Source: Maricaulis sp. (GTDB lineage Bacteria; Pseudomonadota; Alphaproteobacteria; Caulobacterales; Maricaulaceae). From it: a DNA stretch of 64,000 bases. The position numbers and the translations under genes were made by a program. Under the pieces are notes generated by a model that saw only the letters and a program-made list of their open reading frames with translations, was not told where the DNA came from and ran no database searches. The first letter of the stretch is position 1, and every line of letters begins with the position of its first letter. Shown piece after piece: positions 26,856-45,556 of the stretch. The stretch spans positions 1-64,000 of the forward strand of contig NZ_JADFAJ010000043.1 in the NCBI RefSeq assembly GCF_015665295.1, given 5' to 3'.

Positions 26856-26932
26856 GCACCCATAGCTCAGCTGGATAGAGCGCTGCCCTCCGAAGGCAGA
26901 GGTCAGAGGTTCGAATCCTCTTGGGTGCGCCA
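26856..26932 (+). tRNA. tRNA-Arg (anticodon CCG)
   Basis: A 77-base cloverleaf. The acceptor arm GCACCCA pairs with TGGGTGC, the D arm AGCTCAGCTGGATAGAGC and T arm AGAGGTTCGAATCCTCT are canonical, and the anticodon loop CTCCGAA gives CCG. CCA is encoded. The 3' end reads GGGTGCGCCA, and the string GTGCGCC recurs twice in the repeat array that follows directly. Confidence 0.97.
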
Positions 26933-27043
26933 TTTCCTTGATCTCACGGCAACTCGCTTCGCTCGCGCCTCCGATGGGGCGGCCTGGCCGGCCGGCGCGC
27001 AGTCGCGCTTGCGAACCCGTTGGGTTCGAAATGGCGCCTCTAA
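26933..27043 (+). repeat. tRNA-trailing repeat, family I, copy a
   Basis: Begins at the base after the tRNA-Arg CCA. Shared landmarks of family I, in order: TTCC-TGATCTCACGGCA, a GC-rich segment with CGCCTCCGA, GGCGGCCTG-CCGG, and the hairpin CGAACCC-GTT-GGGTTCG (27012-27028). The GGGTTCGAA part resembles a tRNA T arm. No gene is credible here. Confidence 0.8.
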
Positions 27044-27150
27044 GGTGCGCCGTTTTTCCCTTGTTCCCGTTCCGCTCGACCCGAGCCGGATACCGTCTTC
27101 GGTGCCGGGGTCGATGCTCACATGGAACGCGCTCAGGGCTGCAGGGTGTG
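27044..27150 (+). repeat. tRNA-trailing repeat, family II, first tandem copy
   Basis: Starts with GTGCGCC, a copy of the tRNA-Arg 3' end, then TTTTTCCCTTGTTCCC and GTTCCGCTCGACCC. Nearly identical to the copy that starts 122 bases later; the 107-base core differs at only a handful of positions. Confidence 0.88.
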
Positions 27151-27165
27151 GATCTGATCCCGCGA

Positions 27166-27272
27166 GGTGCGCCATTTTTCCCTTGTTCCCGTTCCGCTCG
27201 ACCCGCGCCGGATGCCGTCTTCGGTGCCGGGGTCGATGCTCACATGGAACGCGCTCAGGGCTGCGGGGTGTG
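27166..27272 (+). repeat. tRNA-trailing repeat, family II, second tandem copy
   Basis: Second copy of the 107-base core at a period of 122 bases, again beginning with GTGCGCC and here followed by ATTTTTCCC so that GTGCGCCA exactly matches the tRNA 3' terminus. The spacer between cores (15 bases) is not conserved. Confidence 0.88.
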
Positions 27273-27288
27273 AAGTCTCGCCTTCAAG

Positions 27289-27400
27289 TTGCCCGGTTTT
27301 CCTTGTTTCACGGCAGTCCAGGCGGCGGACGCCTCCATCCGGGCGGGCTGACCGCCCGGCGTGCGGCCGTGCTTGCGAACCCCGCGGGTTCGAACTGGCA
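27289..27400 (+). repeat. tRNA-trailing repeat, family I, copy b
   Basis: A second family I element closes the array. It shares TTCCTTG, TCACGGCAGTCC, GGACGCCTCC and CGTGCTTGCGAACCC with the other copies. Its hairpin is CGAACCC-CGC-GGGTTCG (27376-27392): same arms, different loop. The start boundary reads TTGCCCG, a degenerate form of GTGCGCC. Confidence 0.75.
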
Positions 27401-27439
27401 CCGCTGTCGGACGTCGGCCCTTGACTGCCCTGAGACTTG

Positions 27440-36457: not shown

Positions 36458-36533
<76 letters not shown>

Positions 36534-45389: not shown

Positions 45390-45480
45390 GAGCCCTGAGC
45401 CCATTCCGTGCCGATAACGCCTCCGGTACCGCCAGCCGGATCGGGCCTGGGTCGAGCGGAGCGGGAATGATGAAAGCAAG
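45390..45480 (-). repeat. tRNA-trailing repeat, diverged family II copy (after tRNA-Thr)
   Basis: Read on the minus strand after the tRNA-Thr CCA, it shares TTCCCG-TCCGCTCGACCC, CGG-GGTACCGG and GGAA-G-GCTCAGGGCT with the family II units behind tRNA-Arg, with mismatches and small gaps. The 300 bases between yghU and this tRNA contain no credible gene. Confidence 0.65.

Positions 45481-45556
<76 letters not shown>

What the first reader, a model, noticed from the sequence alone, without database searches (positions are those of the whole stretch)
26933..27400. Array of two alternating repeat families directly behind tRNA-Arg, with units restarting at a copy of the tRNA 3' end
Seen: the base after tRNA-Arg CCA begins repeat I; then two family II units each start GTGCGCC (27045 and 27167), a copy of the tRNA 3' end GGGTGCGCCA; then another family I unit starting TTGCCCG. 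Known: E. coli tyrT is followed by 178-bp repeats, each with a copy of the tRNA 3' end, giving rtT RNA. Inference: these units may arise by duplication across the tRNA end, be cotranscribed with the tRNA, and be cut by RNase E/P at each pseudo-3' end. I know of no description in this lineage.
Basis: partly seen in the sequence, partly recalled or inferred. Interest (0 to 1): 0.82.

Follow-up and report, generated by a model that had tools for sequence, protein, structure and literature searches.

The report
Roaming repeats behind tRNA genes
Behind a transfer-RNA gene of a marine bacterium lies a row of short hairpin-rich repeats that belongs to a repeat family found in many alphaproteobacteria, usually pressed against the end of a tRNA gene, and that appears to be copied from one tRNA gene to another.

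Summary
In detail: behind tRNA-Arg(CCG) lie four units, I-II-II-I (26933-27405), and the inner units start at short copies of the tRNA 3' end. Unit II occurs in 17 of 19 genus genomes and rarely beyond. Unit I occurs in 18 of 190 sampled genomes of the class; its four hairpins show compensatory changes. Of 111 arrays in loci not chosen for tRNAs, 71 follow an intact tRNA, 9 a tRNA 3' fragment, 14 an ORF end. Copy number differs at orthologous tRNAs. This array is 326/340 identical to that behind tRNA-Arg(ACG), whereas the tRNAs match 58/77. I read it as non-autonomous repeats spreading between tRNA tails, probably by recombination. An RtT-like RNA role is not shown: the hairpins lack RNA-type wobble bias (G-T 38, A-C 43; tRNA stems 30, 0). 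The machinery is unknown.

The parts
26856..26932 (+). tRNA-Arg(CCG), host gene of the array; the acceptor end GGTGCGCCA at 26924-26932 is the sequence that is copied
26933..27042 (+). unit I, first copy: T-rich start and four hairpins
27044..27052 (+). copy of the tRNA 3' end (GGTGCGCCG)
   Evidence: family D3
27053..27164 (+). unit II, first copy
27166..27174 (+). copy of the tRNA 3' end (GGTGCGCCA)
   Evidence: family D3
27175..27286 (+). unit II, second copy
27288..27296 (+). possible degenerate tRNA-end copy (GTTGCCCGG)
   Evidence: read by eye
27297..27405 (+). unit I, second copy in the array
   Evidence: D2; R1 match 27296-27401, 78.7 bits
36353..36457 (-). unit I directly behind tRNA-Ala(CGC) 36458-36533
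45391..45467 (-). diverged unit II behind tRNA-Thr(CGT) 45481-45556

Best explanation
The array is made of non-autonomous, palindrome-rich chromosomal repeats (unit I, about 95-110 bp with four hairpins; unit II, about 110 bp) that accumulate directly behind gene 3' ends, above all behind the CCA of tRNA genes and there always in sense orientation. They spread by copying between loci, probably through recombination that uses the tRNA 3' end as shared sequence, which leaves tRNA-end copies at the distal edge of some units and builds tandem arrays. Shown: the location, the orientation near tRNAs, the conserved hairpins, the copy-number differences at orthologous tRNAs and the near-identity of arrays behind two different tRNAs. 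Inferred: that copying or insertion, not only vertical descent, explains the spread, and that the tRNA end is the recombination point. Unknown: the enzyme, if any, and whether a transcript of the units matters to the cell.
For: Own genome: 10 of 10 R1 matches with E below 1e-3 are behind tRNAs. 111 arrays: 71 behind an intact tRNA, 9 behind a tRNA 3' fragment, 3 behind a transposon end that sits between tRNA and unit; in the full set of 121, 73 of 79 tRNA arrays start within 4 nt of CCA. No unit of at least 35 bits is antisense within 40 nt behind a tRNA or lies within 60 nt upstream of one. Structure: covariation score 0.229 against shuffled 0.104 (0 of 500) and at most 0.059 in slid controls. 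Mobility: array 326/340 identical between Arg-CCG and Arg-ACG, tRNAs 58/77, 16 upstream bases 2/16; Arg-CCT carries 2, 2 (second truncated), 1 (plus a truncated start) and 0 units in four species, and Cys 1 and 0 in two; Arg-CCG is I-II-II-I here, I-I-I in G006 and I-II plus a truncated I in G015 with a shared flank; an I/II chimera (L092); identity 0.785 between loci of one genome against 0.746 for pairs sharing neither genome nor tRNA. Boundary: tRNA 10-mers at the distal edge; one unit II framed by an exact copy of at least 16 nt of its own tRNA end (18 nt by eye).
Against: No recombinase was found: a Y1 (RAYT-type) transposase is absent from this genome and from 13 of the 18 other genus genomes; other recombinase families were not searched. 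Own-tRNA copies are not general (mean rank 0.50 over 79 arrays). Same-tRNA copies of different species are as alike (0.788) as copies within one genome (0.785), so locus-bound descent is visible too; the nearest neighbour was in the same genome for 23 of 76 copies, at the same tRNA for 14 and neither for 39. No match in phages, plasmids or viral contigs. Filled and empty sites are diverged (71-77% flank identity), so exact insertion edges and any target duplication are not resolved. The survey started from a tRNA-tail unit, so differently placed subfamilies may be under-counted.
Confidence: 0.55

Rival explanations
1. Functional cotranscribed tRNA trailer: the units are transcribed with the tRNA and released as structured RNA, like E. 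coli RtT, acting as an sRNA, a sponge or a 3' processing or stability element; the tRNA-end copies serve as extra processing points.
For: Sense orientation and abutment to CCA, T-rich start, conserved hairpins. REP elements of another alphaproteobacterium, S. meliloti, show transcriptional activity (passages of PMC2873474).
Against: In the unit hairpins G-T (38) does not exceed A-C (43), while tRNA acceptor stems show 30 to 0. Folding energy of 9 units is ordinary, z from -1.78 to +0.69. No sigma-70-like promoter and one terminator-like site where 1.1 is expected. 32 of 39 tRNAs of the genome do without units, and presence is patchy among species. No Rfam match.
Confidence: 0.2
2. Ordinary local slippage: an old, vertically inherited trailer sequence duplicates in tandem with the tRNA end, without moving between loci.
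For: Tandem arrays with varying copy number; same-tRNA copies resemble each other between species (0.788).
Against: A nearly identical array behind two different tRNA-Arg genes, copies behind lepA, typA-like and other protein genes (names by eye), orthologous sites without units, a single unit with a distal tRNA-end copy followed by unrelated sequence (L248).
Confidence: 0.12
3. Scars of genomic islands: each unit is what is left of an island that integrated at the tRNA 3' end, and the tRNA-end copies are old att sites.
For: Islands seem to use these tRNAs: units lie behind tRNA 3' fragments in 9 of 111 arrays, e.g. Leu-CAA in G015.
Against: The same four-hairpin sequence recurs behind many different tRNAs, behind stop codons and across the class, which ends of unrelated islands would not share. 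Units of 95-122 bp leave no room for genes.
Confidence: 0.08

Closest known systems
E. coli tyrT tandem repeats and RtT RNA (repeat details recalled; RtT described in passages of PMC4986893)
   Same: Tandem repeats directly behind a tRNA, with copies of the tRNA 3' end, in sense orientation.
   Different: No Rfam match; two families, period 95-122 bp; many tRNA species; also behind protein genes; tRNA-end copies only in a minority of units; RNA release unproven.
REP/BIME palindromic repeats with RAYT transposases (recalled)
   Same: Short intergenic palindromic repeats, patchy between genomes, no coding capacity.
   Different: No Y1/RAYT gene in the host genome, single orientation relative to the tRNA, strong tRNA-tail preference, at most 12 blastn matches per genome in 61 genomes.
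tRNA-targeting integrative elements with att duplication (recalled)
   Same: The tRNA 3' end is kept intact and a copy can frame the far edge.
   Different: About 100 bp, no genes, no integrase, tandem multiples.
MITE-like or other small mobile sequences (recalled)
   Same: Non-autonomous and dispersed.
   Different: No terminal inverted repeats or target duplication recognised here (not tested systematically); location at gene ends.

Membership tests
RtT RNA / tyrT repeats | Match to an Rfam family such as RtT | tested here: not met
   only tRNA reaches threshold; the four other matches listed up to E=5 overlap the tRNA gene and none is RtT.
RtT RNA / tyrT repeats | Tandem repeats behind a tRNA, each with a copy of its 3' end | tested here: inconclusive
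   Met for the two inner units here and at some Arg and Ser loci; not general over 79 arrays.
RtT RNA / tyrT repeats | Stable RNA released by tRNA processing | not testable with these tools
   No expression data.
REP/BIME with RAYT | Conserved hairpins | tested here: met
REP/BIME with RAYT | Cognate Y1 transposase in the genome | tested here: not met
   0 in the own genome; 5 of 19 genus genomes have one (G003, G005, G009, G010, G012), and G003 has no unit I blastn match while the other four have.
tRNA-integrating genomic island | Direct repeat of the tRNA 3' end at the far edge | tested here: inconclusive
   Enriched; exact at one single-unit locus (L248); absent from most units.
tRNA-integrating genomic island | Integrase and cargo genes between the repeats | tested here: not met
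   Units are about 95-122 bp.

The most novel reading that the evidence does not exclude
A class-wide family of gene-free DNA hairpin elements that homes to gene 3' ends, chiefly tRNA tails, and uses the tRNA 3' end itself as its recombination site: a mobile element type of about 100 bp moved by a host or island recombinase not yet identified.
Probability: 0.3. Interest if true: 0.82.

Novelty: new variant of a known kind. Interest (0 to 1): 0.63.

Why it matters
Small repeats that settle at one precise place, the base after tRNA CCA, in one orientation and in many genomes of a bacterial class are unusual. They offer a natural experiment on how tRNA tails are invaded, how tRNA 3' ends may act as recombination sites without genes being carried, and whether tRNA trailers can become regulatory RNA. 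Several orthologous tRNA loci with different copy numbers in related species make this testable by strain resequencing and small-RNA sequencing.

Tried and rejected
RAYT link: not supported for this genome. Intrinsic terminator role: no T-run follows hairpin 4 (by eye); my scan found terminator-like sites within 160 nt behind 0 of 7 unit-bearing and 4 of 32 other tRNAs, uninformative; the laxer tool scan found one at 27034-27048, at the edge between unit I and the tRNA-end copy, where 1.1 is expected by chance. Single-sequence folding energy: uninformative. General own-tRNA 3'-end duplication: tested and not supported. Carriage by phages, plasmids or viral contigs: none found (the viral scan used one exact pattern). 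lepA as a clean empty/filled site: unit in 1 of 16 lepA ends fetched (G002; three genus genomes, the own among them, gave no lepA match), but the flank of the nearest relative G005 differs. Arg-ACG of G002 against G005: flank not shared (by eye).

Literature: searches by topic, and 39 and 94 by sequence string. One search listed 20 of 85 papers, all for the one 9-nt string, with six strings of 13-17 nt, found 0 papers. None of the listings showed a description of such repeats. Passages seen: PMC4986893, PMC2267715, PMC2873474. PMC2267715 covered two alphaproteobacteria (Brucella, Rickettsia) and removed tRNA-related clusters, so it would have filtered such repeats out. The library is open access only; older or subscription papers could hold a description.

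Rows dropped: 23 arrays under 35 bits were left out of the 121 (3 tRNA, 15 other, 4 ORF end, 1 fragment); 10 arrays seen only in loci fetched because of a tRNA were left out of the 111, and one row (L069) was moved by hand from other to tRNA. Alignment A3 used 70 of 80 distinct copies: 8 copies from L065, L169, L178, L158 and L093 (long or odd hairpin 1) and 2 near-duplicates were left out. Searches (79 arrays; 106 and 34 units) include loci fetched because of a tRNA. The tRNA list was cut at 150 rows and is used for no count. An earlier count gave 18 of 19; the answer shows 17, corrected.

Full report
What is there. ARAGORN places tRNA-Arg(CCG) at 26856-26932. Directly behind its CCA lie unit I (26933-27042), two copies of unit II (bodies 27053-27164 and 27175-27286; 96% over 108 nt, period 122) and a second unit I (27297-27405; 78% over 76 nt). 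GGTGCGCC, the tRNA acceptor end, recurs at 27044 and 27166; at 27288 there is only a degenerate form.

Own genome. G000 has 3.16 Mb in 44 contigs and 39 tRNAs over the Rfam cut-off. Blastn with unit I gave 9 places and with unit II 6. A covariance model of unit I (R1) gave 10 matches with E below 1e-3; three more, with E from 0.06 to 0.5, are not next to a listed tRNA and I take them for chance. All the confident ones lie in arrays that start directly behind tRNAs: Arg-CCG, Arg-ACG, Arg-TCT, Ala-CGC, Leu-CAA, one Met-CAT and, for unit II, also Thr-CGT. This is 7 of 39 tRNAs.

Relatives. Unit I matches in 27 of 61 genomes, own included, and in 16 of 19 of the genus. Unit II matches in 17 of 19 genus genomes and in 4 genomes of 3 other genera (best E 6.6e-12 in G027). 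The genus is Maricaulis: contig lengths of G018, G001 and G012 equal those of M. maris DSM 4734, M. parjimensis DSM 16078 and M. alexandrii LZ-16-1; G015 has the size that I recall for M. maris MCS10. A core pattern scan of genome contigs gave 35 stretches, 21 from Maricaulis and 14 from others (Sphingomonadaceae, Erythrobacter, Altererythrobacter, Parapontixanthobacter, Tepidamorphus, Mesorhizobium, Rhizobiaceae, Rhodobium, Robiginitomaculum, Neomegalonema; alphaproteobacteria by recall; several are MAGs, where mis-binning is possible). R1 found unit I in 18 of 190 genomes of a class sample, own included. Of the 44 places outside the own genome 28 were handed out as loci; 10 of these 28 (9 arrays) lie behind intact tRNAs (Ser, Arg, Leu, Thr, Met, Phe), two behind what looks like a tRNA-Ser 3' fragment (L207 by eye, L213), and 16 elsewhere, some behind stop codons.

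Placement. In the loci held I found 203 distinct units with nhmmer (164 I, 39 II), in 144 arrays, 121 of them with a unit of at least 35 bits. Counting only arrays seen in loci that were not fetched because of a tRNA, 111 remain: 71 behind an intact tRNA, 9 behind a tRNA 3' fragment (probably att sites of islands, e.g. Leu-CAA in G015), 3 behind a transposon end that sits between tRNA-Arg and the units, 14 at an ORF end, 12 other, 2 at a sequence edge. Of the 26 that are ORF end or other, 14 have an ORF of at least 100 codons ending within -45 to +15 nt, against 276 of 3000 random positions. Examples, named by eye, are lepA in G002 and G112 and an acetyl-CoA acetyltransferase-like gene in G204. 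Among units of at least 35 bits none is antisense within 40 nt behind a tRNA and none lies within 60 nt upstream of one; one weaker unit (34.5 bits, L078, G048) is antisense between two tRNAs, further away. Of 79 tRNA arrays 73 begin within 4 nt of the CCA by the model's edge. The survey was seeded with a tRNA-tail unit, which may favour such copies.

Structure. On 70 distinct unit I copies a four-hairpin structure gives 89.0% paired cells, 123 cells with changes on both sides (shuffled 31) and a covariation score of 0.229 (shuffled 0.104, 0 of 500; slid versions at most 0.059); the count of further pair types is less striking (36 against 32.4, 15 of 500). Part of the inner hairpin 1 is unpaired in almost half the copies (helix 2: 74.3% paired). 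The non-Watson-Crick cells are G-T 38, A-C 43 and other 142 of 1675 (16 of the A-C cells come from one column pair), while the acceptor stems of 107 tRNAs show G-T 30 and A-C 0. So the hairpins are kept, but without the wobble tolerance expected of an RNA on this strand; hairpin DNA fits at least as well. Folding energies are ordinary.

tRNA-end copies. The distal edge of units holds an exact 10-mer of some tRNA 3' end in 12 of 106 unit I and 10 of 34 unit II, at a nearly fixed offset; in flank windows it is 3 of 104 and 0 of 103 for unit I and 0 of 34 twice for unit II, in shuffles 3 of 530 and 0 of 170. At 9 of 10 the figures are 27 of 106 (controls 8 of 104, 10 of 103) and 15 of 34 (3 of 34 twice), with 0 of 8 for units at ORF ends. 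In G002 one unit II is framed by an exact copy of its own tRNA-Arg(ACG) end, and in G006 unit I copies by the Arg(CCG) end. Against a general rule: over 79 arrays the host tRNA's own 13-mer ranked at 0.50 among other tRNAs, and only 5 arrays reached 11 of 13. tRNA-Met arrays in G010, G015, G006 and G027 carry an Ala-type end, which I cannot explain.

Movement. The array here and that behind tRNA-Arg(ACG) on contig C2 are 326/340 identical, the tRNAs 58/77, the 16 upstream bases 2/16; the block of near-identity begins at the shared tRNA 3' end. At orthologous loci copy number and composition differ: Arg-CCT has 2, 2 (second truncated), 1 (plus a truncated start) and 0 units in G001, G012, G008 and G017; Cys has 1 in G007 and 0 in this genome; Arg-CCG is I-II-II-I here, I-I-I in G006 and I-II plus a truncated I in G015 with a shared flank. 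One unit is an I/II chimera (L092). Unit I identity is 0.785 between loci of one genome, 0.788 at the same tRNA type between genomes and 0.746 otherwise (76 copies; the permutations ignore kinship). Both within-genome spread and locus-bound descent are thus visible.

Verdict. I take these for non-autonomous repeats that colonise tRNA tails and, less often, other gene ends, copied between loci probably by recombination through the tRNA 3' end (0.55). The RNA-product reading stays open (0.2) and needs expression data. No transposase or recombinase is tied to them; a Y1 gene is absent from this genome and other families were not searched. No description was found in the open-access searches named under Tried and rejected, which is weak evidence of absence. 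Mending the report against the calls changed some counts but none that bears on the odds.

Noticed in passing
L307:265 and L308:11731 (G010:C1, about 21.7-57.7 kb): A Tn7-like transposon (TniB and TniQ proteins and a protein with Mu-transpos_C and a sub-threshold rve match) with matching inverted ends TGTTGGAC...GTCCAACA and a 5-bp duplication TTTCT sits 5 nt behind the CCA of tRNA-Arg(CCG), between the tRNA and the repeat units; the same end precedes units in G016 and G018 (L275, L110).
   Followed up: partly
L098, L115, L135, L112, L141: Units lie behind 3' fragments of tRNA-Leu, tRNA-Met or tRNA-Arg next to unrelated DNA, as expected at the far att site of islands integrated in these tRNAs.
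   Followed up: partly
L064, L097, L182, L072: tRNA-Met arrays of several genomes carry tRNA-Ala-type 3' end copies, not Met ones.
   Followed up: partly
L065, L169, L178: Hairpin 1 of unit I is replaced by a longer hairpin of different sequence in some copies.
   Followed up: no
L202, L203, L215, L218: Related units of distant genomes follow a long inverted repeat near a gene end (by eye).
   Followed up: no
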